Assembly: GCF_024832785.1 (NCBI RefSeq)
Contig: NZ_CP116615.1
Coordinates: forward strand, 4,526,001 to 4,590,000
Reading direction: 5' to 3'
DNA length: 64,000 bases
From: Fontisphaera persica
Lineage (GTDB): Bacteria > Verrucomicrobiota > Verrucomicrobiia > Limisphaerales > Fontisphaeraceae
Both the position numbers and the translations under genes were made by a program. This document shows, in pieces, positions 1 to 62,386 of the stretch (position 1 is the stretch's first letter; every line of letters starts with the position of its first letter). The notes beneath the pieces are model-generated. The model was not told where the DNA came from. It did not search any database and saw only the letters and a list, made by a program, of their open reading frames with translations.

Positions 1-51
1 TGAGACCAGGAGCAACTGAACTTGGCGGTCAACCTCAACACGTGTTCCACC

Positions 52-828
52 ATGCATCACCAATCCGTAGGTTTTATAGGCGGGGGGCGCATCACGCGCA
101 TTTTCCTGAGCGGCTGGCAAAAAGCCGGCAAGCTGCCTGAGCGGGTCGTGGTCAGCGATGTCCATGCCGAAGTGTTAAGCCGGCTCAATACGGCGCATCC
201 CGCGGTGCAAATCACCGCGGATAATGCGGCGGCGGCGGCGCAGGACCTCGTGTTTCTGGCGGTGCATCCGCCGGTGATGGTTGAGGTGTTGAACGGCATT
301 CGCGCGGCCTTGCGTCCGGAGGCGGTGGTGGTGTCGCTGGCGCCCAAGTTCACGCTGGGCCGGCTGCGGGAGCTGTTGGGTGGTTTTGGGCGGCTGGCGC
401 GGGTGATTCCCAATGCGCCTTCGCTGATGGGGCTGGGGTATAATCCGATGGTTTTTGCGGCGGAGCTGGGCGCGGCGGAGCGGGCGGAAATTGCGGCCTG
501 GCTGGAGCCGCTGGGGGAGCATCCGGAGGTGGCGGAGGAGAAATTGGAGGCGTACGCCTTGTTGAGCGCGATGGGGCCGACTTATTTCTGGTTTCAATGG
601 CAGGCGCTGCGGGAAGTGGCGCTGGGGCTTGGCTTGACGGAAGGGGAAATAGTGCCCGCCATGAAGCGAATGGTGTGCGGCGGCGCGCGGACGCTGCTGG
701 AGTCAGGGTTAAGCCCCGCGGAGGTGATGGATTTGATACCGGTGAAGCCGCTGGCGGAGATGGAAGCGCAGGTGACGGAGTTGTACCGGACGCGGCTGCC
801 AGCGCTGCATCAAAAAATCAAGCCCTAA
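52..828 (+). CDS. Pyrroline-5-carboxylate reductase-like protein (ProC family)
   Basis: Predicted NAD(P)H-dependent reductase of the ProC family, which makes proline from pyrroline-5-carboxylate in the cytoplasm. The 258-residue product opens with a Rossmann dinucleotide site (VGFIGGGRIT) and keeps the family's later pattern of VSLAPKFTLGRL followed by RVIPNAPSLMGLG. The all-helical C-terminal half is present, but the usual SPGGTT-type substrate loop is not recognisable; LIPVKPLAEME stands there instead, so substrate specificity may differ. I chose the ATG at 52; the frame stays open upstream to a TTG at 22, but the Rossmann fold begins directly after the ATG. The gene converges on the RND permease gene, with a 57-base gap. 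proA lies 5.6 kb away and is not in the same operon. The family call is fairly sure; the exact substrate is less so. Confidence 0.75.
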   Translation: MHHQSVGFIGGGRITRIFLSGWQKAGKLPERVVVSDVHAEVLSRLNTAHPAVQITADNAAAAAQDLVFLAVHPPVMVEVLNGIRAALRPEAVVVSLAPKFTLGRLRELLGGFGRLARVIPNAPSLMGLGYNPMVFAAELGAAERAEIAAWLEPLGEHPEVAEEKLEAYALLSAMGPTYFWFQWQALREVALGLGLTEGEIVPAMKRMVCGGARTLLESGLSPAEVMDLIPVKPLAEMEAQVTELYRTRLPALHQKIKP

Positions 829-7707: not shown

Positions 7708-7717
7708 GGGCGAGGGC

Positions 7718-9088: not shown

Positions 9089-9720
9089 ATCTGGGTGAAT
9101 ACATGCTGTTGTCCACCAGTTCGCTGTTCGTGATCATGGATCCGATTGCGCTGGTGCCGGTATTTCTGGCGATGACGCCCAAGGATACGCCCAAGCGGCG
9201 CATTTATTTTGCGCGGCTGGCCTGTCTGGTATCGGCGGGGGTGTTGATTGTTTTTGCCCTGGTGGGCCAGTGGATATTCAAGTTTTTGGGCATTACGCTG
9301 CCGGCGTTTCAGATGGCGGCCTGTGTGGTGCTGTTGCTGGTGGCGCTGGATATGTTGCAGGCCAAACCCACGTCCACCCGGGAAAGTCCGGAGGAAACCG
9401 AGGCGGGCGCGGCCAAGGAGGACATTGCGATAACGCCGCTGGCGGTGCCATTGCTGGCGGGGCCGGGGGCGATTTCGACGACTTTGTTGTTGCAAAGCAA
9501 GGCCACGACGGCCGGGCACAAGATTGCGTTGCTGGGGTGCATTGGGGTGGTGTGCCTGGCCAGCTATGTCATCTTGCACCTGGCGGCGCGGGGTGGCAAA
9601 TGGCTAAGCCCCATTGCCATGAAAATTGCCACGCGCCTGATGGGATTGTTGCTGGCGGCCATAGCTTTCCAATTTCTGTTGAACGCGTTGCGCGAGTTAT
9701 CCCGCTCCGGATACTTTTGA
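9085..9720 (+). CDS. MarC family integral membrane protein
   Basis: A 211-residue membrane protein with six predicted hydrophobic helices, the size and pattern of the MarC/NAAT family (proposed amino-acid exporters or transporters; function not firmly established). It begins MNLGEYMLLSTSSLFVIMDPIALVPVFLAM, split here as SSLFVIMDPIALVPVFLAM, the family's signature first helix with its DPIA motif. Later ITPLAVPLLAGPGAISTTLL matches the conserved repeat of the second half. The ATG overlaps the stop of the upstream ATP-grasp-like gene by four bases, implying translational coupling. Confidence 0.88.
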   Translation: MNLGEYMLLSTSSLFVIMDPIALVPVFLAMTPKDTPKRRIYFARLACLVSAGVLIVFALVGQWIFKFLGITLPAFQMAACVVLLLVALDMLQAKPTSTRESPEETEAGAAKEDIAITPLAVPLLAGPGAISTTLLLQSKATTAGHKIALLGCIGVVCLASYVILHLAARGGKWLSPIAMKIATRLMGLLLAAIAFQFLLNALRELSRSGYF

Positions 9721-37161: not shown

Positions 37162-37509
37162 GCCAACGCCGTCATATACAACAAAAGACGAGGGTGTATG
37201 CCTGAGAGGTTACGTGGGGGTAAGGAGAATTATATACCGCTGAATAAGAAGCTATTATTGTGTTTATCAGTTTGATAAAAAATAAAGACATGGACTCAAG
37301 CGGGGTGGGTTTGGCCGGTAAAAATGAAGACAGGCGTTCATGGTTTCATCTGGACCATGTCCTATCAGGACTGCTTGCCCACACACCAGGCCGGCGCTGG
37401 CGGTGGCGGGCGTATTCTGTCACGGGTTTATATCTGAGGGCGCTGAATGAATGGTGGAGCATCATTCAGGTTTTGCCGTCCAAAACAGAGAATGGTACAT
37501 ATTGACGTT
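37162..37509. other. Divergent intergenic region, comparatively AT-rich
   Basis: This 348-base gap is the longest without a gene. It separates the divergent NlpC-like and alpha-2-macroglobulin genes and is visibly AT-richer than the surroundings at about 37220-37300. It must contain both promoters, but I cannot fix the -35 and -10 elements with confidence. An inverted repeat CATGGT/ACCATG lies near 37340-37360, and two hairpins sit just before the alpha-2-macroglobulin start. No convincing small gene was seen. Confidence 0.5.
37443..37486 (+). promoter_or_regulatory. Two leader hairpins before the alpha-2-macroglobulin gene
   Basis: CTGAATGA, an 11-base loop and TCATTCAG (37443-37469), directly followed by GTTTTG, CCGTC and CAAAAC (37470-37486). 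Both stems are perfect. They end 24 bases before the preferred start at 37510 and could form a leader structure or operator half-sites. The role is inference. Confidence 0.35.
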
Positions 37510-40500: not shown

Positions 40501-43500
40501 CCGGGCCGGACGCAGGAACAAATCAAGCAGGCGGTCAACGAATCCATGCGCGGGGGGTTCACGCTGCACGTCACCCAGGTGCGCGAGAATCGCGCTTATC
40601 TGGAAAGCCGGTGGGTGGAGGTGCCCTGGAGCAACAAGCAGCTTGGGGTGAAATGGGAGCGGCTGGTTTCCAAACTTATGCCCGGCCAGAAAGAGACGTG
40701 GAGCCTGGTGGTCACCGGCCCCAATGCCCAGAAGGCGGCTGCCGAGATGGTGGCCGCGCTCTATGATGAATCGCTGGATGCCTACCTCAAACACAACTGG
40801 ATGCGGCGCTTTAATGTGTTCCGCACGGATCACTCGCAGTTGAGCCGGCAGTTTGAAAACACGCTCAAACATCTCAATCATCTCTACGGCGGCTGGCGCG
40901 AGGAGTATGTGGGCGTGGACTGGCGATACCGTTCTTTCCCCCCTGACCTGACCCAGAATCTTTGGGGCTATCAATACTTCTTCGGCGGTCGCGGCGGGCG
41001 CGCCGTCATGGCCCGCCGGGGCGTGGAGATGGAAATGGCCGATGCCGCGCCCATGGCCGCCATGGCCGCCCCGGCCCCGCCGGCGCCCGGCATGGCCGGT
41101 GAAAACGCGGCCCTCCGCCAGACGGGTGCTCCCATGGACATGGCCAAGGCCGAAAAGCAAAGTGACCGCGGCCTGTCCGAGGAACGCAAGAGCGCCGGGC
41201 GTGACGAGGGCGGCGGTGCGGCGCCGGATTTGAGCAAGGTCAGCCCGCGCAAAAACCTGAATGAAACGGCGTTTTTCTTTCCGCAACTCATCGCGGACAA
41301 GGACGGGGTGGTGCGGCTGGAGTTCACCATGCCGGAGGCACTGACGACGTGGCGCTTTCTGGGGTTTGCGCACGACAAGGAGCTGCGCTCCGGATTCATT
41401 GAGGACAAGGTGGTGACCGCCAAAGATTTGATGGTGCAACCCAACCCGCCACGCTTTTTGCGAGAGGGCGACACGCTGGAGTTCACCGTAAAAATCTCGA
41501 ATCAATCCACCGAGCGCCAGACGGGCAAGGTGGTGCTGAGCTTCCGCGAAGCCGCCACCGACCAGCCGGCGGACAAGAAACTGGGCAACACGCGCAATGA
41601 GGTGGCCTTTGACATTCCGCCCAAGGAATCGCGCACGTATGCCTGGCGCCTGAGCGTGCCTGATGGTCTGGGTTTCCTGATTTACAAGGCGGTGGCTTCC
41701 ACGGGCAAACTGGCCGACGGCGAAGAAGGGCATCTGCCGGTGTTATCGCGGCGCATTTATGTGACGGAGTCGCTGCCGCTGCCCATTCGCGGGCCGGGGA
41801 CAAAGAAGTTTGAGTTCACCAAGCTGGTGAAGAACCGCTCGGGCACACTGCAGCATCAGGGGTTCACCGTGCAAATGGTTTCGCAGCCGGCGTGGTATGC
41901 CGTCATGGCGCTGCCGTATCTGATGGAGTATCCGTATGAATGCTCCGAGCAAATCTTCAACCGCTATTACGCGAACACGCTGGCGCGGCACATTGCCAAC
42001 AGCGACCCCAAAATCCGCCGCATCTTTGACCAGTGGAAAAACACGCCGGCACTGGACAGCCCGCTGGAGAAAAACCTGGAGCTGAAGTCGGTGCTGCTGG
42101 AGGAAACGCCGTGGTACCGGGATGCTCAGAATGAGAGCCAGGCGCGCCGGAATGTGGGCATATTGTTTGATGACAACCGCCTGAACTATGAGCTCAATCG
42201 CGCCCTGCAAAAGCTGGGGGAGATGCAGATGAATGACGGCCGCTGGCCGTGGTTTCCCGGCGGGCCGGGGGATGATTACATCACCCTGTACATCGTGACG
42301 GGCTTTGGGCGGTTGCGGCATCTGGGCTGCGACCTCAAGGTGGACCCCGCGCTGAAGGCGCTCGGCCGCCTGGACGAGTGGATGGACGAACGGCACCGGG
42401 AAATCCTGCGGGTCATGAAGAATCCGGATGCATACGTGCCCAGCGCGCTGGATGCGTTGTACCTCTATGGCCGGAGCTTTTTCCTGAAAGACAAAGCCGT
42501 GGCCAAGGAGCATCAGGATGCGGTGCAATTTTTCCTGAAGCAGTCGCGCAATCACTGGCTTAAGCTGGCCAACCGCCAGAGCCAGGCGCACCTGGCGATT
42601 GCCATGAAACGGTGGGGCGGAGCGGAGAATGGCGATACGGCGCTGGCCATCATGCGGTCCATCAAGGAGCGGTCGGTGTCCAACGAGGAGATGGGGATGT
42701 TCTGGCGTGATTTGGAGCTGTCGTGGTGGTGGTTCCACGCGCCGATTGAGACGCAGGCGATGATGATTGAGGCCTTTGACGAAGTGATGAATGACGCCCG
42801 GGCGGTGGAAGATTGCAAGGTCTGGCTGCTGAAGCAGAAACAAACTCAGAACTGGAAGACCACCAAGGCCACCGCCGATGCGGTGTATGGTTTGCTGCTG
42901 CGCGGCAACAACCTGCTGTCCAGCGATGCGCTGGTGGAGGTGAGCGTGGGCGGACTGGCGATTAAACCGGAGAAGGTCGAGGCCGGGACGGGCTTCTACG
43001 AAAAACGCTTCAGCGGCGCCGAGGTGAAGGCCAAAATGGGGCAGATTACGGTGAAGAAAACCGACCCGGGCGTGTCGTGGGGCAGCGTGCACTGGCAATA
43101 TCTGGAGGACATGAGCAAGGTCACGCCTTACGAGGGCACGCCGCTCAAACTGAAGAAGACGCTGTATGTGAAGACGCACACCAAAAAAGGCCCGGTGTTG
43201 GAGCCGGTCAAAGGCCCCATCAACGTGGGGGATGAACTGGTGGTGCGGATTGAATTGCGCGTGGACCGGGACATGGAATACGTGCATTTGAAGGACCAGC
43301 GGGGGAGCGGGGTGGAGCCGGTGAACGTGCTTTCGCGCTATCGCTATCAGGATGGCCTGGGGTACTACGAGAGCACGCGGGACACGGCGAGCCATTTCTT
43401 CATCAGCTACCTGCCCAAGGGCGTGTACGTGTTTGAATACTCCACGCGCGTGCAGCATCGGGGCACTTATCAAACCGGCATGGCGTCCATCCAGTGCATG

Positions 43501-43554
43501 TACGCGCCGGAGTTCAACAGCCACTCGGAGAGTTTTAATCTGGTGGTGAAGTAG
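37510..43554 (+). CDS. Alpha-2-macroglobulin family protein with thioester motif
   Basis: Very large exported protein (2014 residues) of the bacterial alpha-2-macroglobulin family, thought to trap invading proteases in the periplasm or at the surface. A signal peptide is at MRTWLILLGTVLAVQLQLQA. An N-terminal helical, repeat-like region (about residues 25-360) precedes the MG domains, which include the MG2 signature FFTDRALYRPGQTISFKGI. The A2M core is marked by LNETAFFFPQLIADKDG and TMPEALTTWRFLGFAHD. The thioester motif is YPYECSEQIF, with Cys1478 and Gln1481. A Met/Ala/Pro-rich low-complexity insert lies at about residues 1160-1250, in the position of the bait region. I chose the ATG at 37510 because it gives the signal peptide. 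No penicillin-binding pbpC partner is adjacent. Confidence 0.93.
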   Translation: MRTWLILLGTVLAVQLQLQAGVRDAQWKKVDEAINQGLPKSAIEALEPIIQGATKDKAWGEVAKAVCRKIVLEANIQGNKPEEKITRLQAEIAKAPGELKPVYHAIQATWYWHYFIQNRWRFVQRTATAAEPGKDFTTWDLPRLFAEIDKEFTAALAAADVLKKMPVSQFDDLLIKGSIPDKYRPTMYDFLAHEALQFYTSGEQAAAKPQDAFEVPATSPILDGLAAFLAWKPETTDTESPKLKAIRLYQDLLRFHQPDSDPTALLDVDLARLHYGYNTAFGDEKRARYKAALKAFVDQWTDHELAAMALHHWALVVREEGDWVEAHRLASRGAKVYPKSAGGLMCRNLVREIESRELSLNTERVWNAPWPKIRVQYRNIAEVHFRLVAWDWDATFQKRGRRPEWLDDAGRKEVLKRAPAHAWSAKLPPTTDYQGRVESLAAPENLKPGFYYLLASAKADFSDQDNVVHFTDIWVSDLALVPRTFNGMVQGFVLEALTGEPVANAEVRSWHWDNQGNRVANAPVRTDENGFFVLDVPSQRGYLLHVRHQGRELASQNEYWASPPVRRRPASQTLFFTDRALYRPGQTISFKGICLQVDQEQDKYELLPGQKLTVVFADPNGKEIERREVRANDFGSFSGSFTAPRDRVTGRMRIFVQGGPNGSASVSVEEYKRPKFQVSLDAPKTAARLNDRVELGGKAESYTGAAVDNALVKYRVVREVRYPIWWRWYYWWNPDPSSGAQEIAHGSTRTGTDGTFKVEFVAKPDLSISPTNEPTFHYTVYADVTDNTGETRSAQRAVMVGYTALQASLSAEEWLTGEKPVAIALYTTTLDGEGQAAEGSLKIYQLEQPATVIRPELAPQYYPRQRGGGLEGGADKPGPTADPNTWPLGKVVAERGLTTSTNGRQTASFNLGPGVYRAIFETQDRFGKPVKAMLPLRVLEPAAEKLNLKIPSLLAAPKWQCEPGEEFMALWGTGYDTGRAYIEIEHRGKMIQKYWTRPGRTQEQIKQAVNESMRGGFTLHVTQVRENRAYLESRWVEVPWSNKQLGVKWERLVSKLMPGQKETWSLVVTGPNAQKAAAEMVAALYDESLDAYLKHNWMRRFNVFRTDHSQLSRQFENTLKHLNHLYGGWREEYVGVDWRYRSFPPDLTQNLWGYQYFFGGRGGRAVMARRGVEMEMADAAPMAAMAAPAPPAPGMAGENAALRQTGAPMDMAKAEKQSDRGLSEERKSAGRDEGGGAAPDLSKVSPRKNLNETAFFFPQLIADKDGVVRLEFTMPEALTTWRFLGFAHDKELRSGFIEDKVVTAKDLMVQPNPPRFLREGDTLEFTVKISNQSTERQTGKVVLSFREAATDQPADKKLGNTRNEVAFDIPPKESRTYAWRLSVPDGLGFLIYKAVASTGKLADGEEGHLPVLSRRIYVTESLPLPIRGPGTKKFEFTKLVKNRSGTLQHQGFTVQMVSQPAWYAVMALPYLMEYPYECSEQIFNRYYANTLARHIANSDPKIRRIFDQWKNTPALDSPLEKNLELKSVLLEETPWYRDAQNESQARRNVGILFDDNRLNYELNRALQKLGEMQMNDGRWPWFPGGPGDDYITLYIVTGFGRLRHLGCDLKVDPALKALGRLDEWMDERHREILRVMKNPDAYVPSALDALYLYGRSFFLKDKAVAKEHQDAVQFFLKQSRNHWLKLANRQSQAHLAIAMKRWGGAENGDTALAIMRSIKERSVSNEEMGMFWRDLELSWWWFHAPIETQAMMIEAFDEVMNDARAVEDCKVWLLKQKQTQNWKTTKATADAVYGLLLRGNNLLSSDALVEVSVGGLAIKPEKVEAGTGFYEKRFSGAEVKAKMGQITVKKTDPGVSWGSVHWQYLEDMSKVTPYEGTPLKLKKTLYVKTHTKKGPVLEPVKGPINVGDELVVRIELRVDRDMEYVHLKDQRGSGVEPVNVLSRYRYQDGLGYYESTRDTASHFFISYLPKGVYVFEYSTRVQHRGTYQTGMASIQCMYAPEFNSHSESFNLVVK

Positions 43555-49935: not shown

Positions 49936-50439
49936 ATGGACAAGCTGACCCGCATGACCAAATTTTGGGGCATCTGCGCCGGGGTGGCGGTGGGCGTTGC
50001 CGTGGGCGGGGGCTTGTTCACGTTTGTCTATGCGCGGGGTGCCTCCTACCTGACCAATGACCCCCAGGCGTGCGCCAACTGCCACATCATGCGCGAGCAT
50101 TACGAGGCGTGGGTCAGGTCCAGCCATCGCAGCGTGGCCACGTGCAACGATTGCCACACCCCGCCCGGCGTGGTGGCCAAGTACGTTACCAAGGCTGAGA
50201 ACGGTTTTTTTCATTCGCTGTATTTCACCACGGGTGATTTTCCCGATCCGTTGCGCATCAAGCCGCGCAACCGGAGCGTGACCGAACAAGCCTGTCGCAA
50301 ATGCCACACCCCCATTGTGGAGGCCATTGAGGCCCACCAGGGCAACGACACCCTCTCGTGCATGAAGTGCCATGCCGACGTGGGGCACCCTTTGCGGGGG
50401 GCGTTTGCGCCCGACCTGACCACTGCCTATGAGCGCTGA
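49936..50439 (+). CDS. nrfH: Cytochrome c nitrite reductase small subunit NrfH
   Basis: Membrane-anchored tetraheme quinol dehydrogenase of the NapC/NirT family, 167 residues, which passes electrons from menaquinol to NrfA. One N-terminal helix (about residues 10-30) is followed by four CxxCH heme sites: residues 46-50, 70-74, 120-124 and 142-146. The number and spacing fit NrfH. The nrfA ATG lies inside its 3' end (11-base overlap), so the two are translationally coupled. Expression is probably controlled by the FNR-like box upstream. Confidence 0.95.
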   Translation: MDKLTRMTKFWGICAGVAVGVAVGGGLFTFVYARGASYLTNDPQACANCHIMREHYEAWVRSSHRSVATCNDCHTPPGVVAKYVTKAENGFFHSLYFTTGDFPDPLRIKPRNRSVTEQACRKCHTPIVEAIEAHQGNDTLSCMKCHADVGHPLRGAFAPDLTTAYER

Positions 50440-51826
50440 ACCGCAAATACCCGAAACTGTCCGGAGCAAGGCCATGCGCGTGGCCTTGTTGACCATCATC
50501 GTGGCCTGTGGGGTGACCATTGTGGGCCTGGCCTTTCTCACCACGATTGTGGAGCGCAAACAGGAGGCCAAAAATCCCTTCTTCCGCGTGGTGGAGCTGA
50601 ACGACGACACCCAGGACCCGGCCATCTGGGGCAAGAATTTCCCGATGCAGTATGACGATTACAAGCGCACGGTGGACCAGGTGCGCACCAAATACGGCGG
50701 CAGCGAGGCGATGCCGCGCACGCCCACGCAGGCGGATCCGCGCTCGGTGGTTTCCCAGTCGCGGCTGGAGGAGGACCCGCGCCTTAAGACGATGTGGGCC
50801 GGGTATGCCTTTGCGGCGGACTTTCGCGAGGAGCGGGGCCATGCCTTCATGCTGGAAGACCAGACATTTACGGGGCGGCAGCGGGTGGTGAAACAGCCGG
50901 GCACGTGCATGCATTGCCATGCGTCGGTGTATGTGCCGTACAAAAAACTGGGCAACGGCGACCTCTTCAAGGGCTTTGAAAAGATGAACTCGATGCCGTG
51001 GGCCGAGGCGCGCCCGCTGGTGGAGCATCCGGTTACCTGCATTGACTGCCATGACTCGCAAACCATGGCCCTGCGCATCACCCGCCCGGGTTTCATCGAG
51101 GGCATAACCGCGCTGAAGGCCGCTCAGGGAGTGAAAAATTATGACGTGAACCGCGACGCCACCCGCCAGGAGATGCGCTCCTACGTGTGCGCCCAATGCC
51201 ACGTGGAATATTACTTCAAGGGCCAGGAAAAACGGCTGGTGTATCCGTGGCACCATGGCCTGAAGGCCGAGCAAGTGCTGGCTTATTATGATGAAGTGGG
51301 GCACCGCGACTGGGTTCATGCCGACACCGGCGCGCCGGCGCTCAAGGTGCAGCATCCGGAGTTTGAGTTGTGGAGCCAGGGCATCCACGCCCGCAGCGGG
51401 GTGGCGTGCGCCGACTGCCACATGCCGTTCAAGCGGGTGGGGGCCACGAAAATCAGCGACCACCATGTCCGCAGCCCGCTCTTGAACATTTCCCACGCCT
51501 GCCAGACCTGCCACAAGTGGCCTGAAGCGGAGTTGAAGGCGCGGGTGGAGACCATTCAGGACCGGACCTACCAGTTGCGCAACCAGGCCATGGACGCGCT
51601 GATGGATTTGATTGCCGATCTCAAGAACGCCCGCGCCGCCGGCCTGGCCACCAACCATCCGGCGCTGGTGAAGGCGCAGGATTTCCAGCGCAAGGCGCAA
51701 TTCTTCCTGGACTTTGTGGAAGCGGAAAATTCGATGGGCTTCCACGCGCCGCAGGAAGCCGCGCGCATTTTGGCCGAGTCCATCAACTTCGCCCGCAAAG
51801 GCCAGATCGCCATCCGGGACCGGTAG
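50429..51826 (+). CDS. nrfA: Ammonia-forming cytochrome c nitrite reductase, CxxCH variant
   Basis: Periplasmic pentaheme enzyme that reduces nitrite to ammonium with six electrons. The 465-residue product has an uncleaved or cleaved N-terminal helix (MRVALLTIIVACGVTIVGLAFL). It has five heme motifs starting at Cys160, Cys204, Cys254, Cys327 and Cys358. The first is CMHCH (160-164), where most NrfA enzymes carry CxxCK with lysine as catalytic-heme ligand. The heme spacing and segments such as YFKGQEKRLVYPWHHGLKAE (calcium and active-site region) and GVACADCHMPF show it is a true NrfA. It forms an operon with nrfH. Confidence 0.95.
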   Translation: MSAEPQIPETVRSKAMRVALLTIIVACGVTIVGLAFLTTIVERKQEAKNPFFRVVELNDDTQDPAIWGKNFPMQYDDYKRTVDQVRTKYGGSEAMPRTPTQADPRSVVSQSRLEEDPRLKTMWAGYAFAADFREERGHAFMLEDQTFTGRQRVVKQPGTCMHCHASVYVPYKKLGNGDLFKGFEKMNSMPWAEARPLVEHPVTCIDCHDSQTMALRITRPGFIEGITALKAAQGVKNYDVNRDATRQEMRSYVCAQCHVEYYFKGQEKRLVYPWHHGLKAEQVLAYYDEVGHRDWVHADTGAPALKVQHPEFELWSQGIHARSGVACADCHMPFKRVGATKISDHHVRSPLLNISHACQTCHKWPEAELKARVETIQDRTYQLRNQAMDALMDLIADLKNARAAGLATNHPALVKAQDFQRKAQFFLDFVEAENSMGFHAPQEAARILAESINFARKGQIAIRDR

Positions 51827-51838
51827 GCAGGCCCGTGA

Positions 51839-52951
51839 TTACAAATGCGTTGGGCCTTCGCCGTCGCCGCGGGTGAGGTGGGCTTGGGCGCAGGTGTGGG
51901 GCCAGGGTTGCAGGCGCGCGGCCAGTGGGGGGGCGGCGGCAAAGATGAAATTGGAAGGCCCGGGCAGCCAGCCGGCCCGGCGGAAAGCTTTGACCCAGGC
52001 CTGATGCGCCTGGTTGGTCACTATCAGGTCCACCCCGCGCCGCAGCAAAAAATCGGTGGCGGCGGCGGCCACTGCGTATTCAGCGCCGGACGCCGCCAGC
52101 ACATCCACCACGGAGCCGACGCGGAGGTTGCCGAAATGGCGACTGTCGCGCATGGGGGTGTCGAGGGCCACGGTCCAGCCCACGATTTCCTGGTGGCGTT
52201 TAACCTGGAGTTTGAGAAAGCGCGGATGCCCCGGGGGGTAGAGCCGATTCAGGGCGGGCAGGGTACGCTCCGCAATGAAGGCATAATGTGGCGCGGCGGC
52301 CTGCCAAAGGTCATCCACCCACGCATCGAAGTGCGGTATTTCAGTGACTTCCACTCCTTGGGGCGGTCCGGCCTGGCGGACGGCCTGCCAGGCGCGCAGA
52401 CCGAGCCAGGCCAGTCCCGTGGCCGCCAGTACCCTGGCTGCCAGGGCGCGTCCGCGGGTACGCTGGAGGAGGGGTAATTCGCGCAACAAAACGGCCGGGC
52501 GCGCGGGATAAAACAAAAACGGCACCGGCACGAGCTGCCAGCGGCTGGCCTGCAAGAGGCGGGGCAGGGGACGGTCCAGGCCGCCCATGCCCAGACAGTA
52601 AAGCAGCGGTTGCTGGCGTTGGGCGTGGAGGAGGATTTGCAGGCCGAGCGCGCCAAATCGGGAATCCACCAGCGCCTCGCTGACGGGGGAATAGAGATAG
52701 CCGACTGCCAGGGTCTCCTGCCCCACGCGGAAGGGCTGGTGTTTGAGCACGTAGCCGCCGCGCACGTCCGGGCCGTCTTTGGCGAGCCACAGCTCTTCGT
52801 AGAGAGGGGAGGCACCGTCCCGGGGAAGCCAGGTGGAAACGGCGGTTTCGGGCAATTTGAAATCGGTAATGCCCCCGGCGCGCAGGCGTGCATTGAAGGC
52901 CTGCACGGCCGGCATATCGTCCGGTGTGGCGCGTTGAATTTGGATGCCCAT
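51839..52951 (-). CDS. GNAT-like acyltransferase of the ACP/FkbH operon
   Basis: A 370-residue cytoplasmic protein with an N-terminal GNAT-like start (MGIQIQRATPDDMPAVQAFN), then WLAKDGPDVRGGYVLKHQPF and GALGLQILLHAQRQQPLLYC. The C-terminal half also looks GNAT-like (FLKLQVKRHQEIVGWTVALD, VVDVLAASGAEYAVAAAATD), so it may be a tandem fold with two GNAT domains. It is the last gene of the four-gene operon; its start overlaps the stop of the deacetylase-like gene by one base. The acyl donor could be the ACP of the same operon, which is inference. No membrane segment was seen. Confidence 0.6.
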   Translation of the reverse strand: MGIQIQRATPDDMPAVQAFNARLRAGGITDFKLPETAVSTWLPRDGASPLYEELWLAKDGPDVRGGYVLKHQPFRVGQETLAVGYLYSPVSEALVDSRFGALGLQILLHAQRQQPLLYCLGMGGLDRPLPRLLQASRWQLVPVPFLFYPARPAVLLRELPLLQRTRGRALAARVLAATGLAWLGLRAWQAVRQAGPPQGVEVTEIPHFDAWVDDLWQAAAPHYAFIAERTLPALNRLYPPGHPRFLKLQVKRHQEIVGWTVALDTPMRDSRHFGNLRVGSVVDVLAASGAEYAVAAAATDFLLRRGVDLIVTNQAHQAWVKAFRRAGWLPGPSNFIFAAAPPLAARLQPWPHTCAQAHLTRGDGEGPTHL

Positions 52952-53883
52952 CAGGTGGTGCCCACGCGGAGCTTATGCCGGAGCCAGCGCCATTCCAAGT
53001 GAGAACGCTCGGCGGGGGTGAGCGTGTGCAGGCCGCGCTGTTGCCGCAAATAATCCAACAACACCGCCACCGGCACAAACCAGCCCGGCTTGCGGCTGAG
53101 CCGCTCCATCAATTCGCGGAATCGCGGGTGCACGCATCCCTGGGCGGCAAACCCCTTGGCCAGGTGGGTATAGACGATGCAGGCGCCGCCTTCGGCCTCG
53201 AGGCGGTCCTGGTGGGCCTCGTGCAACAGCGCATTGAAACTGTCCACGTGTGCGCCTTCGCTGGCGGCAAACCAGGCGGCCACATAGGGGCGGTCGGGGT
53301 CGTAATAGGGCATCCAGGGGCAGGCGGCGAGGGTGTTGATGCCGGGAAAGACAAAATTGCGTACGTAGCTCAATTGGTCGCGGCAGACGTCCCCCCAGAA
53401 ATAAGGGTCGCCGGGCACATGACCTCGATAGCGTCGGGCGTGACGGAATCCGGTGAGCAGCAGGTAGAGCCAGCGGCGGACGCCACTCAAGCGGCCGGGT
53501 CCCCAGTACAGTGCTTCGCGGCAGGTGGTGTGGGTGGCCATGGTGCGCGGCGGGCCGCCGAAGAGGCGGGCGAAGGTGTCGAGTCCGCGCAGGGTCTGCT
53601 CGCGGGTGGAACTGTGGCAGGTGGCGTTGTGCCAGGCAATTTCAAAGCCCTGCTGTTGGAGGGATTGCGCCCAGGCCAGGTAATCCGGGTCAGCGCAAGT
53701 GGCGCCGCCCACGACTTCCGGGGGCTGGGTGGGCGGGAGGGGCCAGACAGTTTTCGTGGTGCGAAAACCGAGGCCGGCGAGCAAATCATAGACGGGCCGC
53801 AATTTTTCGACGGTGGCGGCGTCGGTGTCATCAAACACCGTGAAGGCAAACCGCTTTCCTTCCGGCCACACGATGGGGGTCAT
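52951..53883 (-). CDS. Polysaccharide-deacetylase-like protein
   Basis: A 310-residue protein with features of the NodB/polysaccharide deacetylase fold (or the DUF2334-like relatives). FAFTVFDDTDAATVEKLRPV stands at the place of the metal-binding TFDDG motif, followed later by FEIAWHNATCHSSTREQTLRGLDTF, matching the H-x3-H/S-x2-T motif 2 (IAWHNATCHSST). There is no signal peptide. The start overlaps the stop of the FkbH-MaoC gene by four bases, and its own stop overlaps the GNAT-like start. It probably deacetylates or otherwise processes an amino sugar intermediate in the cytoplasm; this is inferred from the fold. Confidence 0.65.
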   Translation of the reverse strand: MTPIVWPEGKRFAFTVFDDTDAATVEKLRPVYDLLAGLGFRTTKTVWPLPPTQPPEVVGGATCADPDYLAWAQSLQQQGFEIAWHNATCHSSTREQTLRGLDTFARLFGGPPRTMATHTTCREALYWGPGRLSGVRRWLYLLLTGFRHARRYRGHVPGDPYFWGDVCRDQLSYVRNFVFPGINTLAACPWMPYYDPDRPYVAAWFAASEGAHVDSFNALLHEAHQDRLEAEGGACIVYTHLAKGFAAQGCVHPRFRELMERLSRKPGWFVPVAVLLDYLRQQRGLHTLTPAERSHLEWRWLRHKLRVGTT

Positions 53884-56501
53884 GGGACGGAGGGTAGGAC
53901 ACCGGCATGAATTTTACCCGCCACCCAGGCGACGCCCGGCGCCGCCTGGGGATGCGCGATGGCCACCTGGGTGATGACCGAGGAGGTGGAGGCGGAGGTG
54001 TAGTTCACGTGCCCTTGGAACCGGTAGGGTTGGTATTTTTCCAGGGGTTGATGGAAGGTCAGCTCCACGTTGCGGCAGGTGCCGTAGCGGCCGGGGATGC
54101 ACTGGCCGACAAAGGTGGAGACCAGCGAGGTGGCCAGCAGGCTGGCAGTGTCGCAGCGCCAGCGCCAGGTCTCATAATCCACCGGCATGTTGTCCACCGC
54201 GCCCGCCAGCAGCTCGTAGGCCGCGAGCAGGCTGGCATCGGTGATGACGAAGGTGAAGCCGGCCTCCATGCCGCGGGGGATTTGCTCCAGGGCCAGCTCC
54301 GGACTTTGGAGGGGGTCGGTGACCAGTGCCGGGCTGCCGCTCTGTGGGGCGGTGAGGAGGGTGGTGTCCTGCGAAGTTTTTTCGAGCACATACGCCGCCA
54401 AACCGTTGGTAAGGTCCAGGCCGGTGTTGCGGTGGCGGATTTGGAATTCAATCTCCACCGCGCGGACTTCGCGGATGTACTCGGTGATGGTGGCGCGGAG
54501 CAGCAGCGGGTCATCCGGGTAAATGGGGTGATTGAAATTGGCTTTGAGCTGGCGGAACATGGCGCGGCGTCCGGGTTGCTGGACGAGGTCGAGCACGGAA
54601 AGGAACAGCAAGGGGCACATGCCATGGACCAGGAGACCGCCGTAACGGGTGCGGCGCGCAAATTCGGGGTCGGCATGCAGGGCGCTGGCGTCGCCGGTCA
54701 GGGCAATAAACTGGCGCAGCGTTTCGCCGGTGATGGCGAGATTCAGTTCCGCCGACTGGCCGACTTCAATGGAGGGGCGGACGGTGGTCTGGCCGCTGCC
54801 GGCGGCCAGTTGGATGTAATCGGGCAGGGGGTACTTCAAGCCGGTGTTCCAGAGGAACCGGCGGCCATCGGTGGTTTGAAAACCGCTGCGCTGCCAGAAT
54901 TCGAGGCAGAGTTTGTTTTTGGGGGTGGGGAGGTATTCGGCCACCACCTCGTGCGCCCCGGCGGCCAGGGCCTGCTGCACCAGCCAGTGCACCATGGTCT
55001 GCTCCACCTTGCGGCCCAGGACGCGGCAGCTCAACAGGAAATCCACGATTTTTGCCTGCTCCCCCTGCACCTGCAAGCTGGCCAGGCCGGTCAGGCCGGA
55101 GTCGCCCAGCTTGTCTTTCACGCGGAACACCCAGACGGCATGGCCGGGCACCGAAGCCCAGGCGGCCAGTTCGGCTTCCGAGAGGCGCCGCGTGGTGAGA
55201 TTCATCTGATTGGTCTTGTTCAGCAGTTGGGCCGCGCGTGGCAGATTGGCGGGGTTGAGCTTTTCCACTTTGACCTGCAGCTCGAGCCGGCGGAGCCAAT
55301 CTTCCACGGAGGGCACTTCGCGCCGCAAATCGGCCCGGCGGCGCTCGGCCTCGTAGGCGGCCACGCGGGCGCGGTCTTCCTCGCTCAGGCGGGGGTTTTC
55401 AAAGCATTTCAAGGAGAGCAGGGTGCGGGAAAAAAGCATGGGGTTTTCCGGCCATTCCGGCACGAGCACCTCGGGGAGGGCTTCACGGATGCGCGCGCGT
55501 TCGGCGGGCTGGTCATCAATGAACACCACTGATTGCAAACCCAGCCGCAATTCGGCGGCCAGCTCCGCGAGGTTCTGCGCTTTGTCCTGCCAGTTGATGC
55601 GCCAGCCCGCGAAGTCTTCGGGGCGCAGTTGCATTTCGGGATGTTCGCGCAGGGCGGTCAGGGCGGTGGTCTCGTCATTTTTGCTGACGATGCCCAGCAG
55701 AATGCCCTGGCGGGTGAGCGCCTTGAGGGTGCGCTGGAAGTCCGCATACGCCTCGCCGAGGGCGTCATGGCCGCCGACCTGCAATTTTTCCCAGCCCACT
55801 TCGCCCACGATGCCGCCCCAGAGGGTGTCATCGAGGTCCACCACCACGAGTTTGCGTGCCTGGCCGGTGAGGCCCTGCAGGGCGGCTTTCAGGTCGCGGG
55901 CGGCCGCCTGAAACACCGCGTGGTTGAAGGGGATTTTGCCCTGAAACCAGAGCTTGTCCTGGAAGGCTTCCTTGCCACCGGCGATGAACCACGGGACACT
56001 ATCCAGCACAAAAACATTGGGGATGTCCGCCAGGGCTTCGGCCAGGCGGAGATTCATCTGGGCCAGCAGGCGGGCCGCGCCGCGCGCCGGTTGCCAGGCG
56101 GCCAGCACGCCGGCTGGCCAGGTGGCCTGCCACGAGGGCACAAACAGCCACTTGACCCGCCCCGCTGCCGCGGCCACCGCCTGGGCAAAACTGTCCACTG
56201 CCGCCAGCACCGCGCCTGGGTCAGAAGGCAAATTGGCCAGGGCGTCGCGGAAGGGGGGCGCCACCATTTCGGGGCGCGTCCATACCCAGGCAAAGTCGGG
56301 ATGGGCCAGCCACTCCGGGCGTTGGGCATCGGCGAGCATGGGGAGGACTTCGCCGTAATCGCCGGCGATGACTTCCACGGTGGGCGATTCCTCGTTGTTC
56401 TCGAGAATGCCCGCAAAATTCAGCGCATTAAAGTCCGCCAGCAGCAGACCTTTAAGGCTGCGCGGGGCGCCGATGGAAAACGCATGCTGCGAGTCCGTCA
56501 T
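53880..56501 (-). CDS. FkbH-like HAD-IIIC/GNAT protein fused to MaoC-type hotdog domains
   Basis: An 873-residue multidomain protein. Residues about 1-210 resemble the SGNH-like N-domain of FkbH proteins. A HAD-IIIC domain follows, with KLVVVDLDDTLWGGIVGEVG (Asp222, Asp224), Lys274 in IVSKNDET and VVFIDDQPAER at 325-334. A GNAT-like domain ends near 550 (SCRVLGRKVEQTMVHWLVQQ). Known FkbH enzymes load a glyceryl unit from 1,3-bisphosphoglycerate onto an ACP. From about 575 a MaoC-type hotdog follows, with LTGDASALHADPEF (Asp604, His609) and GGLLVHGM. A second hotdog-like domain ends the protein (GQCIPGRYGTCRNVELTFHQ). It lies 39 bases after the ACP gene and overlaps the deacetylase-like gene. 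Confidence 0.85.
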   Translation of the reverse strand: MTDSQHAFSIGAPRSLKGLLLADFNALNFAGILENNEESPTVEVIAGDYGEVLPMLADAQRPEWLAHPDFAWVWTRPEMVAPPFRDALANLPSDPGAVLAAVDSFAQAVAAAAGRVKWLFVPSWQATWPAGVLAAWQPARGAARLLAQMNLRLAEALADIPNVFVLDSVPWFIAGGKEAFQDKLWFQGKIPFNHAVFQAAARDLKAALQGLTGQARKLVVVDLDDTLWGGIVGEVGWEKLQVGGHDALGEAYADFQRTLKALTRQGILLGIVSKNDETTALTALREHPEMQLRPEDFAGWRINWQDKAQNLAELAAELRLGLQSVVFIDDQPAERARIREALPEVLVPEWPENPMLFSRTLLSLKCFENPRLSEEDRARVAAYEAERRRADLRREVPSVEDWLRRLELQVKVEKLNPANLPRAAQLLNKTNQMNLTTRRLSEAELAAWASVPGHAVWVFRVKDKLGDSGLTGLASLQVQGEQAKIVDFLLSCRVLGRKVEQTMVHWLVQQALAAGAHEVVAEYLPTPKNKLCLEFWQRSGFQTTDGRRFLWNTGLKYPLPDYIQLAAGSGQTTVRPSIEVGQSAELNLAITGETLRQFIALTGDASALHADPEFARRTRYGGLLVHGMCPLLFLSVLDLVQQPGRRAMFRQLKANFNHPIYPDDPLLLRATITEYIREVRAVEIEFQIRHRNTGLDLTNGLAAYVLEKTSQDTTLLTAPQSGSPALVTDPLQSPELALEQIPRGMEAGFTFVITDASLLAAYELLAGAVDNMPVDYETWRWRCDTASLLATSLVSTFVGQCIPGRYGTCRNVELTFHQPLEKYQPYRFQGHVNYTSASTSSVITQVAIAHPQAAPGVAWVAGKIHAGVLPSVP

Positions 56502-56540
56502 TAACAGAAGTAAGAAAAAAGCAAAAAGTGCGCCACAAAA

Positions 56541-56855
56541 TTACGATAACTTCTGCTCCAATAGTTTGCGAATATGCTCGGCCAAAGTTCCCAAAGTTGC
56601 AAAGGGGCTGGACTCGGCTGCCATGGTCTGGTCATCGGCCAGCATGATGGGGCAGCCGAATTCTGCTTCAATGCGCTGCTCGGTGAGGACCAGCAAGTTG
56701 ATTAACCCCAGGGAATCGAGCCTCCCACCTTCGCCGGTGAGGCGTTCTTCCGGGTTTTTGGCAAGTCGTTGGTCCCGGCGCAGTTGCAAGTTCAGCTCGT
56801 CCACTGCGCTCCAAAGGATGGCCTTAATTTTTTCCGCATCCGCCGCTTGTCCCAT
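56541..56855 (-). CDS. Acyl carrier protein (dedicated, operon-linked)
   Basis: A 104-residue acyl-carrier-type protein. The phosphopantetheine site is RLDSLGLINLLVLTEQ, with Ser48 in DSL. The helical context (ERLTGEGG before, FGCPIMLADD and LAEHIRKLLEQ after) is that of an ACP, although the residue after Ser is L-G rather than the usual L-D. I prefer the ATG at 56855; the frame is open up to a TTG at 56924, and the longer form would add 23 residues. It is the first gene of the operon with the FkbH-MaoC protein, which by family knowledge needs a cognate ACP. It is divergent from the PVC cytochrome gene. Confidence 0.82.
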   Translation of the reverse strand: MGQAADAEKIKAILWSAVDELNLQLRRDQRLAKNPEERLTGEGGRLDSLGLINLLVLTEQRIEAEFGCPIMLADDQTMAAESSPFATLGTLAEHIRKLLEQKLS

Positions 56856-56967
56856 GGGTACGTTGTTGTTTAAGGCTTGCTCAAGAATGGTTTCAATCAA
56901 GCATGCGGGCTGCCGGTGTGTCAATCTTCGCGTGTGATTATTTGGCCTGCTGGGGACCCATGACGGT

Positions 56968-60372: not shown

Positions 60373-60580
60373 AGCGCCCGGACGGCGGGCGTCCGCAGGC
60401 GGCATGCGCTGGCGTTCCGGGCCTTTTACGTTCGTTCAGGGCAAACCTGGGCGGGAGGGGGCGGTGGTCACGAGGCAGGGTTCAAGGTTCCCGGCAACAG
60501 CGCATGTAAAACACTGGACAAACCCCCCGGCACAGGCTTTCATTTGCCGGATTTTGCGGGCACCCCGCCGCAAGCTGCGC

Positions 60581-62386
60581 ATGAATGTTGAATTAATAAC
60601 ACGCGCCAAAGCGCTAGGTTTTTCAGATCGGCAAATCGCTCATTTAACCGGCCAGACCGAGGATGCAGTGCGTGCCTGGCGGCTGGCGCATGGCTTGACG
60701 CCCTCCTACCGGCTGGTGGACACCTGCGCGGCGGAGTTTGAGGCGTACACCCCGTACTATTATTCGACGTATGACCGGGGCGATGACGAGGTCAAACCCA
60801 GCGACCGCCCCAAAATCATGATTTTGGGCGGCGGCCCCAACCGGATTGGGCAGGGCATCGAGTTTGATTACTGTTGCGTGCACGCGGCTTTTGCGCTCAA
60901 GGAGATTGGCTTTGAGACCATCATGGTCAACTCCAACCCGGAGACGGTCTCGACCGATTACGATACCAGTGACCGGCTCTACTTCGAGCCGCTGACGCTG
61001 GAGGACGTGCTGCATATTTATCACCGCGAAAAATGCCAGGGGGCCATTGCGCAATTTGGCGGGCAAACGCCGCTAAACCTCGCCCTGGGCTTGCAGCGCA
61101 ACGGGGTGAACATCATTGGCACCTCGCCCCAGAGCATCGAGATTGCCGAGGACCGCAAACTTTTTGCGGCGATGCTGCGCAAACTGGATATTCCCCAGCC
61201 GCCCAATGGCATAGCCACCAACGAGGCGGAGGCGCTGGCGGTGGCGCGCGAGCTGGGCTATCCGGTGCTGGTGCGGCCGTCGTTTGTGCTCGGCGGGCGG
61301 GCCATGCAGATTGTGTATTCCGACGCCGAGCTGGCGCATTACATGCGCTTTGCGGTGGAGGCATCGCCGGAGCGGCCGGTGCTGGTGGACAAGTTTCTGG
61401 AGGACGCCATCGAGGTGGATGTGGATTGCATTGCGGATGTGGGGCTGTACCCCAGTCCGCAGCAGGGGCTGGTGGTGATTGGCGGGATGTTGGAGCATAT
61501 CGAGTTTGCGGGGGTGCACTCGGGGGACGCGGCCATGGTGCTGCCGCCGCATACGCTTTCCCGGGAAATCATCCAAACCATTCGCGAATATACGCATGCC
61601 ATGGCGCGCGAGTTGCGCGTGGCGGGGCTGATGAACGTGCAATACGCCGTCAAGGACGGGCGCGTGTATGTGCTGGAAGTCAACCCGCGCGCGTCCCGCA
61701 CGGTGCCCTTTGTGAGCAAGGCGATTGGCGTGCCCCTGGCCAAGCTGGCGGCCAAAATCATGGCCGGAAAAACGCTGCCGGAGCTGGGCTTCACGGCGGA
61801 AATCTGGCCGACCTATTGGGCGGTCAAGGAGTCAGTGTTCCCTTTCAATCGTTTTCACGGCCAGGACATTCTGCTTTCGCCCGAGATGCGCTCCACCGGC
61901 GAGGTCATGGGGCTGGATGCGGATTTGGGCATTGCCTACGCCAAATCCCAAATGGCGGCCGGCTCGCCGCTGCCCACCTCGGGGCGGGTGTTCATCAGCG
62001 TGAGCGATGCGGACAAACCGCACATTGCGGAGGTGGCGCGGCAGTTTTTGGAGCTGGGCTTCGAGCTGGTGGCAACGCATGGCACGGCGGCGGCCATCAG
62101 CAAGGCTGGTCTGCCGGTCAAGACAGTGTTCAAGCTGAGTGAGGGCCGGCCCAATTCGGTGGACATGCTCAAGAACCGCGAGATTCAACTGGTCATCAAC
62201 ACGCCCTCAGGCCAGGTGCCGCGCGCGGATGAAATCAAAATCCGCACCACGGCGGTGTACACCGGCACGCCCATCATGACGACGCTGGGAGGTGCCAAGG
62301 CCGCCGCGCTGGGCATCGCGGCCCTGAAACAGCGCGGGTACGACGTCAAGACGCTGCAGGAGTATCACGAAGTGCGCCCGGCTTGA
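60581..62386 (+). CDS. carB: Carbamoyl-phosphate synthase large subunit, C-terminal half
   Basis: Cytoplasmic enzyme half for the second phosphorylation (carbamate to carbamoyl phosphate) in pyrimidine and arginine synthesis. The 601-residue product starts in the end of the CarB oligomerisation domain (ELITRAKALGFSDRQIAHLTG, in part), continues with YRLVDTCAAEFEAYTPYYYS and ILGGGPNRIGQGIEFDYCC. It then has the complete second ATP-grasp domain (RPSFVLGGRAMQIVY, VLEVNPRASRTVPFVSKAIG) and the C-terminal allosteric MGS-like domain (FELVATHGTAAAISKAG). The first ATP-grasp half (about 470 residues) is missing; upstream is an unrelated intact gene. So carB is split, with the first half elsewhere. 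I chose the ATG at 60581; the frame extends to 60404 without CarB similarity. Confidence 0.93.
   Translation: MNVELITRAKALGFSDRQIAHLTGQTEDAVRAWRLAHGLTPSYRLVDTCAAEFEAYTPYYYSTYDRGDDEVKPSDRPKIMILGGGPNRIGQGIEFDYCCVHAAFALKEIGFETIMVNSNPETVSTDYDTSDRLYFEPLTLEDVLHIYHREKCQGAIAQFGGQTPLNLALGLQRNGVNIIGTSPQSIEIAEDRKLFAAMLRKLDIPQPPNGIATNEAEALAVARELGYPVLVRPSFVLGGRAMQIVYSDAELAHYMRFAVEASPERPVLVDKFLEDAIEVDVDCIADVGLYPSPQQGLVVIGGMLEHIEFAGVHSGDAAMVLPPHTLSREIIQTIREYTHAMARELRVAGLMNVQYAVKDGRVYVLEVNPRASRTVPFVSKAIGVPLAKLAAKIMAGKTLPELGFTAEIWPTYWAVKESVFPFNRFHGQDILLSPEMRSTGEVMGLDADLGIAYAKSQMAAGSPLPTSGRVFISVSDADKPHIAEVARQFLELGFELVATHGTAAAISKAGLPVKTVFKLSEGRPNSVDMLKNREIQLVINTPSGQVPRADEIKIRTTAVYTGTPIMTTLGGAKAAALGIAALKQRGYDVKTLQEYHEVRPA

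What the first reader, a model, noticed from the sequence alone, without database searches (positions are those of the whole stretch)
51839..56855. Overlapping operon: ACP, FkbH-MaoC fusion, deacetylase-like and GNAT-like proteins
Four genes share strand and overlap at stop/start codons (four bases and one base), after a dedicated ACP gene. FkbH proteins are known to load glyceryl groups onto ACP in polyketide pathways; here the FkbH part is fused to two MaoC-type hotdogs and is accompanied by a polysaccharide-deacetylase-like and a GNAT-like enzyme, with no ketosynthase or NRPS. It could make an unusual acyl or glyceryl unit for transfer to a surface glycan or small metabolite. I know of no described pathway with this exact set.
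Basis: partly seen in the sequence, partly recalled or inferred. Interest (0 to 1): 0.75.

Follow-up and report, generated by a model that had tools for sequence, protein, structure and literature searches.

The report
Acyl-loading operon for sugar decoration
Four neighbouring bacterial genes look like a small assembly line that charges a three-carbon acid onto a carrier protein and hands it to an amine, probably on a surface sugar, and relatives in other bacteria keep the last two genes but swap the charging enzymes.

Summary
The operon is real. On the minus strand: an ACP (56541-56855, 39 bp before the next gene), a FkbH protein fused to two hotdog domains, a CE4-fold protein and a double-GNAT protein; the last three overlap by 4 and 1 bases. 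The last two reach no Pfam or NCBIfam cut-off; predicted models place them with polysaccharide deacetylases (best Z 15.4) and N-myristoyltransferases (best Z 20.8).

The CE4-like/NMT-like pair is rare but coupled: of 320 genomes of the order, the same three hold full-length copies of both, adjacent. Around the pair the acyl-donor module changes: ACP+FkbH-MaoC (window), ACP+FkbH (Lysobacter antarcticus, in an exopolysaccharide locus), ACP+FkbH+epimerase-like VOC, 2-oxoacid dehydrogenase+ACP, or a formyltransferase.

Best reading: FkbH loads glyceryl on the ACP, the MaoC domain modifies it, and the NMT-like enzyme transfers it to an amine, probably on a cytosolic sugar intermediate exposed by the CE4-like protein. 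The chemistry is inferred. The canonical CE4 HxxxH motif is not met, so deacetylation is less secure. The hotdog fusion was not found in 195 other genomes of the order. New variant of a known kind.

The parts
56541..56855 (-). acyl carrier protein, 104 aa from ATG 56855 (frame open to TTG 56924); predicted attachment Ser48 in LDSLG
   Evidence: nearest relatives are ACPs beside FkbH in L031 (43%) and L032 (40%)
53880..56501 (-). FkbH (about residues 1-565: HAD motif VDLDDTLWGG at 221-230, Cys492 in the LSCR motif) fused to a MaoC hotdog (about 575-700, D/H motif GDASALH at 603-609) and a second, degenerate hotdog (about 728-873)
   Evidence: TIGR01686 297.1 bits; PF01575 41.8 bits; 3slr and 3ir3 in PDB by sequence
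52951..53883 (-). CE4-fold (polysaccharide deacetylase-like) protein, 310 aa, probably cytosolic
   Evidence: AlphaFold2 pLDDT 67.4, pTM 0.74; PuuE 3cl6 Foldseek E 1e-4 and Z 15.4, 1z7a Z 15.3; invariant D18 D19 D21 E81 H85 H118 D165 H240 in 6 relatives
51839..52951 (-). double-GNAT protein with N-myristoyltransferase-like fold, 370 aa; conserved extreme C-terminus (TRGDGEGPTHL)
   Evidence: AlphaFold2 pLDDT 81.9; 1iyl_A Z 20.8, 313 residues, rmsd 4.4; C-termini of 5 relatives

Best explanation
The operon encodes a cytosolic, ACP-dependent N-acylation line. (1) FkbH takes a C3 unit from 1,3-bisphosphoglycerate, removes phosphate and loads D-glyceryl on the operon's ACP (inferred from the family). 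(2) The fused MaoC hotdog acts on the glyceryl-ACP, most simply by removing the beta-hydroxyl to give a 2-hydroxyacryloyl/pyruvyl thioester (inferred; the least certain step). (3) The CE4-like protein exposes an amine on a sugar intermediate, such as a nucleotide- or lipid-linked amino sugar (inferred from fold and from neighbours in relatives). (4) The NMT-like double-GNAT enzyme moves the acyl group from the ACP to that amine, perhaps with its conserved C-terminal carboxylate as base, as in NMT (inferred). The product would be a surface polysaccharide with an N-linked C3 acyl group. Shown here: gene content, predicted folds, coupling of the last two genes, exchange of donor modules around them, and repeated location in glycan-type loci. 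Not shown: any reaction.
For: Same four-gene order in Lysobacter antarcticus (L036): ACP 7624-7935, FkbH 7932-9677, CE4-like 58%, NMT-like 43%, with the same ATGA overlap between FkbH and CE4-like genes, in a locus with a TIGR03013 sugar transferase (538.8 bits, cut-off 393.35), a ligase whose best match is TIGR03098 (below its cut-off) and an asparagine synthase. L047: ACP, FkbH, VOC and NMT-like on one strand with CE4-like beside them on the other, and by eye an O-antigen-ligase-like protein and a glycosyltransferase nearby. L068: E1-alpha, E1-beta, E2, ACP, CE4-like 54%, NMT-like 34% in one run with gaps of 1-43 bp (Pfam for E1-alpha and E2). L048: formyltransferase, TIGR03006 deacetylase, CE4-like 64%, NMT-like 48% in one run. 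In the order, full-length CE4-like in 3 of 320 genomes and full-length NMT-like in the same 3 of 320; Fisher p 1.8e-7 on full-length counts, not corrected for relatedness. MaoC-type proteins lie near FkbH in 5 of 56 FkbH loci (L040, L053, L070, L077 and, weakly, L074). N-D-glyceroyl on Qui2NAc4N of the Pragia fontium O-antigen is listed in PMC10609480 (table row and reference). ACP-to-UDP-amino-sugar acyl transfer is proposed for Flavobacterium psychrophilum (PMC6519341 passages). FkbH-to-ACP glyceryl loading from 1,3-bisphosphoglycerate is described in PMC7489565 (passages). NMT's C-terminal carboxylate as base: PMC7048800 (passages).
Against: No enzyme here has been assayed. The window cassette does not sit in a recognisable polysaccharide locus: none of the 22 other window ORFs scanned hits a glycan-biosynthesis family, and the nearest exosortase-family match (below cut-off) is about 450 kb away, the nearest over cut-off about 506 kb. 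CE4 motif 2 (HxxxH) is not kept, and the CE4-like model is of middling confidence, with only one Foldseek match at E 0.001 or better. FkbH of the same clade often occurs without the pair: of 14 genomes searched for the CE4-like protein, the 11 others beside G388, G314 and the Lysobacter genome had none. In L048 the donor would be formyl-tetrahydrofolate, which needs neither ACP nor GNAT, so the NMT-like protein's role there is unexplained; that genome does have a FkbH/ACP/MBOAT/MaoC locus elsewhere (L070). The B. thetaiotaomicron plasmid pairs its CE4-like protein with an ordinary GNAT, not the NMT-like one. The window's sister FkbH proteins in the tree (L034, L035; 97/97) come from an isolate with no CE4-like match.
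Confidence: 0.5

Rival explanations
1. The NMT-like enzyme makes a diffusible N-acyl amino acid or peptide (as FeeM-type synthases do with acyl-ACP), and the CE4-like protein is a hydrolase of that small molecule; the glycan neighbourhood in relatives is incidental.
For: N-acyl amino acid synthase genes are reported beside PEP-CTERM/exosortase genes, and the title of a cited FeeM paper names acyl carrier protein binding (PMC7293339, passages and reference list only). The window genome has exosortase-family proteins. The window cassette stands outside any recognised glycan locus.
Against: The GNAT-like protein matches no NCBIfam family beyond one chance-level line (11.3 bits, E 0.11) and is modelled as a double GNAT, not the single-GNAT type (recalled for FeeM). 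Lysobacter antarcticus has no exosortase match yet keeps the cassette in an exopolysaccharide-type locus. CE4-like genes recur in glycan-type loci.
Confidence: 0.2
2. Protection/deprotection as in the Arn pathway: the variable module adds an N-acyl or N-formyl group that the CE4-like protein later removes, and the NMT-like protein adds a different final group.
For: ArnD is among the fold matches (Foldseek rank 2; Z 11.9), and L048 pairs the CE4-like gene with a formyltransferase.
Against: PuuE and many other CE4 proteins score higher than ArnD by Z; an ACP-FkbH unit is a costly protecting group; L048 also has a classical TIGR03006 deacetylase.
Confidence: 0.13
3. The acceptor is a protein or lipid amine rather than a sugar: a bacterial NMT-like acyltransferase for C3 units.
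For: The best structural matches over the whole chain are protein N-myristoyltransferases.
Against: Identity in those alignments is 6-10%; the coupled partner has a carbohydrate-esterase (CE4) fold; neighbours in relatives are glycan-type genes.
Confidence: 0.1
4. The set feeds a polyketide or nonribosomal pathway, as in methoxymalonyl-ACP or tetronate formation.
For: FkbH and a free-standing ACP are part of those operons (PMC7489565 passages).
Against: The FabH-like partner of the tetronate operon and the dehydrogenase and methyltransferase partners of the methoxymalonyl operon are not in this operon; none of the 22 other window ORFs scanned hits a ketosynthase or NRPS family.
Confidence: 0.04

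Closest known systems
FkbH/ACP glyceryl-loading pair of tetronate and methoxymalonyl-ACP pathways
   Same: FkbH domain over its NCBIfam cut-off, HAD motif, adjacent dedicated ACP
   Different: MaoC and second hotdog fused; no FabH-like enzyme, dehydrogenases or methyltransferase in the operon; CE4-like and NMT-like genes follow
ACP-dependent R-group transfer to Qui2NAc4N in Flavobacterium psychrophilum O-polysaccharide (wfpC-G; PMC6519341, passages only)
   Same: Dedicated ACP and an acyltransferase proposed to acylate a sugar amine
   Different: There the acyl chain is thought to be built by ketoacyl-ACP synthases and a reductase, and the transferase is PglD-like; here FkbH would load it and the transferase is NMT-like
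N-myristoyltransferase (double GNAT)
   Same: Whole-chain predicted fold (Z 20.8 to 1iyl_A); conserved extreme C-terminus
   Different: About 8% identity, no PDB sequence match for the family profile, bacterial, probable ACP donor
CE4 polysaccharide deacetylases (PuuE, ArnD, WbmS among the matches)
   Same: Predicted fold; DD motif and several invariant His/Asp
   Different: HxxxH motif 2 not kept; no Polysacc_deac_1 match
XrtA/PEP-CTERM-type exopolysaccharide loci
   Same: The Lysobacter cassette lies among genes of this type; L048 carries TIGR03006
   Different: The window cassette lies about 450 kb or more from the nearest such matches, and the Lysobacter genome has no exosortase match

Membership tests
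FkbH (TIGR01686) | score over the curated cut-off | tested here: met
   297.1 bits against 146.65
FkbH (TIGR01686) | HAD catalytic motif DxDxT | tested here: met
   VDLDDTLWGG at 221-230
FkbH (TIGR01686) | dedicated ACP alongside | tested here: met
   ACP 39 bp upstream
FkbH (TIGR01686) | loads glyceryl from 1,3-bisphosphoglycerate | not testable with these tools
   needs an assay
MaoC-type hydratase/dehydratase | score over the curated cut-off | tested here: met
   PF01575 41.8 bits against 27
MaoC-type hydratase/dehydratase | D/H pair in the first hotdog | tested here: met
   GDASALH aligned with GDENPLH (L053) and GDASPLH (L040)
MaoC-type hydratase/dehydratase | D/H pair in the second hotdog | tested here: not met
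   GAVDNMP at the aligned place
CE4 polysaccharide deacetylase | NodB-like fold | tested here: met
   3cl6_A Z 15.4, 212 residues, rmsd 3.3; but model pLDDT 67.4 and only one Foldseek match at E 0.001 or better
CE4 polysaccharide deacetylase | canonical HxxxH metal motif | tested here: not met
   window has H85-x4-H90; a His at +4 in 1 of 6 relatives only (L068), at +5 in 3 of 6, none in 2 of 6
CE4 polysaccharide deacetylase | Pfam Polysacc_deac_1 match | tested here: not met
   only DUF2334 at E 0.19, below cut-off
N-myristoyltransferase | two adjacent GNAT domains | tested here: met
   model aligned 1..365 with NMT chains, Z 20.8
N-myristoyltransferase | sequence homology to NMT | tested here: not met
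   no PDB sequence up to E 10 with the 4-row profile; no Pfam match up to E 1
N-myristoyltransferase | C-terminal carboxylate as catalytic base | not testable with these tools
   C-terminus conserved in 5 of 5, but model pLDDT is under 50 there
FemX-type double GNAT | closest fold | tested here: inconclusive
   not among the 50 listed entries, which excludes nothing
N-acyl amino acid synthase, PEP-CTERM-associated | NCBIfam match | tested here: not met
   no such family among the matches (that a model for it exists in the library is recalled)
Glycerate-utilisation operon (tetronate) | FabH-like partner in the operon | tested here: not met
   operon content
XrtA/PEP-CTERM exopolysaccharide locus | EpsB-type and exosortase genes nearby | tested here: not met
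   nearest exosortase-family match about 450 kb from the window cassette

The most novel reading that the evidence does not exclude
A modular acyl-swap system: a conserved CE4-like/NMT-like pair N-acylates sugars in the cytosol using interchangeable donor modules (FkbH-ACP, 2-oxoacid dehydrogenase-ACP, formyltransferase), and the window's FkbH-MaoC fusion turns 1,3-bisphosphoglycerate-derived glyceryl-ACP into a pyruvyl-type ACP thioester. That would be a new route to C3 acyl groups and, to my knowledge, the first NMT-like enzyme to use an ACP donor.
Probability: 0.25. Interest if true: 0.72.

Novelty: new variant of a known kind. Interest (0 to 1): 0.55.

Why it matters
Bacterial surface glycans carry various small N-linked acyl groups. 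N-D-glyceroyl is listed for Pragia fontium, but the passages I saw name no enzymes that attach it. This cassette gives a testable gene set for loading and transferring such a group, links FkbH chemistry to polysaccharides, and points to a bacterial NMT-like transferase family that matched nothing by sequence in the Pfam, NCBIfam and PDB searches made here.

Tried and rejected
PDB sequence search with the CE4-like profile gave only unrelated chains (best E 0.19), and with the NMT-like profile none; folds had to be predicted. FemX-type proteins did not appear among the 50 rows, which excludes nothing. The G406 CE4-like matches are short fragments and were not counted as full-length; the G654 match runs off a contig end; both were left out of the Fisher count. 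The G431 NMT-like match (E 7e-8, partial) lies in an ordinary-looking GNAT, by eye, in a glycan-type locus and was also left out. A test whether the window, Lysobacter and L047 FkbH proteins form one clade was borderline (p-AU 0.053), so neither a single origin nor repeated capture of FkbH is claimed. Sub-cut-off TIGR03013 matches mean little: the same search rings in 9 of 14 control genomes, 0 over the cut-off. Proteins upstream of the L034 and L035 ACPs had no Pfam match, so the '?GNAT' label I gave them in the tree is unproven. The paper on Bordetella wbmS gave nothing on function (PMC3849452 passages).

Literature searches: FkbH with polysaccharide, O-antigen, acyltransferase or glyceryl (0 papers; 28: 20 of 251 listed; 31: 2; 65: 15 of 19 listed) and glyceric acid or glyceroyl in O-antigens (15 of 97 listed; 80: 15 of 123 listed). 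No listed title or opening of an abstract describes this gene set. Passages of seven papers were seen; none was read whole. The library holds open-licence papers only, so absence from print is not shown.
Full report
Observation. On the minus strand the window holds ORFs 56541-56924 (ACP; 104 aa from ATG 56855), 53880-56501 (873 aa), 52951-53883 (310 aa) and 51839-52951 (370 aa). The last three overlap by 4 and 1 bases; the ACP lies 39 bp upstream. The 873-aa protein carries FkbH over its cut-off and MaoC over its cut-off. A second hotdog follows: the free-standing MaoC-type protein of L070 matches both halves (25% over 577-702, 33% over 728-819), and the alignment shows the D/H pair only in the first. 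The 873-aa protein has one match in the 4.73 Mb genome, itself.

The last two proteins. Neither reaches a curated cut-off in Pfam or NCBIfam. A model of the 370-aa protein from a four-row alignment has mean pLDDT 81.9; the 50 entries listed by VIA-align are, by title, N-myristoyltransferases (Z 19.5-20.8; Foldseek likewise), and the alignments run to residue 359-365 of 370. Five of five relatives end in [TN]R[GS]DG[ED]GPxx[LI]. In NMT the C-terminal carboxylate is the catalytic base (PMC7048800 passages); that it is so here is inference, and the model is weak there. The 310-aa protein modelled at pLDDT 67.4. Foldseek ranks PuuE (E 1e-4), ArnD (E 1e-3) and another deacetylase first, with only one match at E 0.001 or better and unrelated barrels further down; VIA-align puts PuuE and other CE4 proteins on top (Z 15.4 and below), with GH57 enzymes lower. 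Across six relatives D18, D19, D21, E81, H85, H118, D165 and H240 are invariant, but the second His of HxxxH is not. So it has a CE4 fold with an altered metal site; deacetylase activity is plausible but not shown. A hydropathy scan shows no strong N-terminal hydrophobic stretch in the four window proteins or in the eight relatives of the last two that were tested; the two highest 19-residue means (1.92) are internal, in the MaoC domain and in one NMT-like relative. They probably work in the cytosol.

Relatives. FkbH itself is common: 42 of 288 genomes of the phylum have a relative at E 1e-10 or better. A scan of species genomes with the FkbH protein gave 12 loci. Lysobacter antarcticus (L036) has ACP, FkbH (no MaoC), CE4-like (58%) and NMT-like (43%) in the same order, with XrtA-type exopolysaccharide genes around them, although no exosortase match was found in that genome. 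The pair is rare: in the window's phylum 2 of 387 genomes have the CE4-like protein (the window's own and G314), in the order 5 of 320 (three full-length, one at a contig end, one as fragments), in a sample of the Lysobacter family 1 of 297 (L. antarcticus itself). The NMT-like protein is found in 4 of 320 of the order: the same three full-length, plus one partial match to an ordinary-looking GNAT. The same-genus genome shown, G397, has neither. So the cassette is patchy, which fits horizontal transfer but does not prove it.

Modularity. Around the CE4-like/NMT-like pair the neighbouring module differs: ACP+FkbH-MaoC (window); ACP+FkbH (L036); ACP+FkbH+VOC, with the CE4-like gene beside them on the other strand (L047); E1-alpha/E1-beta/E2+ACP (L068; Pfam for E1-alpha and E2); formyltransferase+TIGR03006 deacetylase (L048). 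A more distant CE4-like gene (31%) follows an ordinary GNAT gene in a region with an annotated O-antigen ligase on a Bacteroides thetaiotaomicron plasmid. This exchange is the main new result and suggests that the pair is the constant acceptor side and the rest a donor side. The formyltransferase case fits least well, because formyl transfer needs no ACP. The converse does not hold: of 14 genomes with FkbH or pair relatives searched, only the three already known (G388, G314, L. antarcticus) have the CE4-like protein; the 11 others do not.

FkbH side. The window FkbH falls in a 12-row clade (100/100 support) from seven named phyla plus candidate division KSB1, distinct from the 16 other FkbH proteins in the tree. 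Within it a VOC protein like methylmalonyl-CoA epimerase (TIGR03081, below cut-off) follows FkbH in 4 of 12 rows (L031, L032, L033, L047), and a MaoC is fused in 1 of 12; some of the other contigs are too short to tell. Among 56 FkbH loci examined (the window not counted), a MaoC relative lies in the fetched stretch in 5 (one weak) and a VOC relative in 11 (two weak) (stretches differ in length, so these are lower bounds). L070 has FkbH, ACP, MBOAT and MaoC relatives; an SDR-like ORF after them was named by eye. L077 has a MaoC-reductase fusion overlapping FkbH. So thioester-modifying enzymes recur beside FkbH. The proposed chemistry (epimerisation at C2 by VOC; beta-elimination by MaoC to a pyruvyl-type thioester; reduction to lactyl where a reductase is present) is inference. 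A search with the hotdog part found, in 195 other genomes of the order, three weak matches (E about 1e-7 to 5e-7) in open frames of 146, 161 and 489 aa, too short to hold a FkbH fusion.

Context. The window cassette lies between a cytochrome c552/NrfA gene and a DUF7133 protein, not in a recognised glycan locus; 22 other window ORFs were scanned, not all. The genome has four exosortase-family matches, one over the cut-off, and two TIGR03013 matches, none over the cut-off; the nearest is about 450 kb away.

Precedent. [quoted passage not shown] ACP-to-UDP-sugar acyl transfer proposed: PMC6519341 (passages). N-D-glyceroyl on Qui2NAc4N in Pragia fontium: PMC10609480 (table row and reference). N-acyl amino acid synthases near PEP-CTERM genes: PMC7293339 (passages and references). 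These make the N-acyl-sugar reading plausible and keep the small-molecule rival serious.

Verdict. A real, scattered arrangement of known enzyme types, not described in any paper that my searches listed; mechanism inferred, confidence 0.5; new variant of a known kind.

Noticed in passing
window 49936-51826, + strand: NrfH-like protein (Cytochrom_NNT) followed by a cytochrome c552/NrfA; by eye all five heme motifs in the NrfA are CxxCH, with no CxxCK.
   Followed up: no
window 28418-29611, + strand: Phage capsid family protein (PF05065) in a stretch where GC skew dips to about zero; possible prophage remnant.
   Followed up: no
window 60404-62386, + strand: Carbamoyl phosphate synthase large-chain half with an MGS domain, 660 aa; looks like a split or short large subunit.
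   Followed up: no
window 37447-43554, + strand: 2035-aa bacterial alpha-2-macroglobulin family protein.
   Followed up: no
L053 2738-8498; L070 6194-11997: FkbH, ACP, MaoC and MBOAT clusters, with transketolase-like (NCBIfam) or SDR-like (by eye) genes beside them: a possible O-acylation counterpart of the cassette.
   Followed up: partly
L037 7311-10373: FkbH with an N-terminal left-handed beta-helix-like part, next to a beta-helix-like protein ending in a carrier-like domain (by eye).
   Followed up: no
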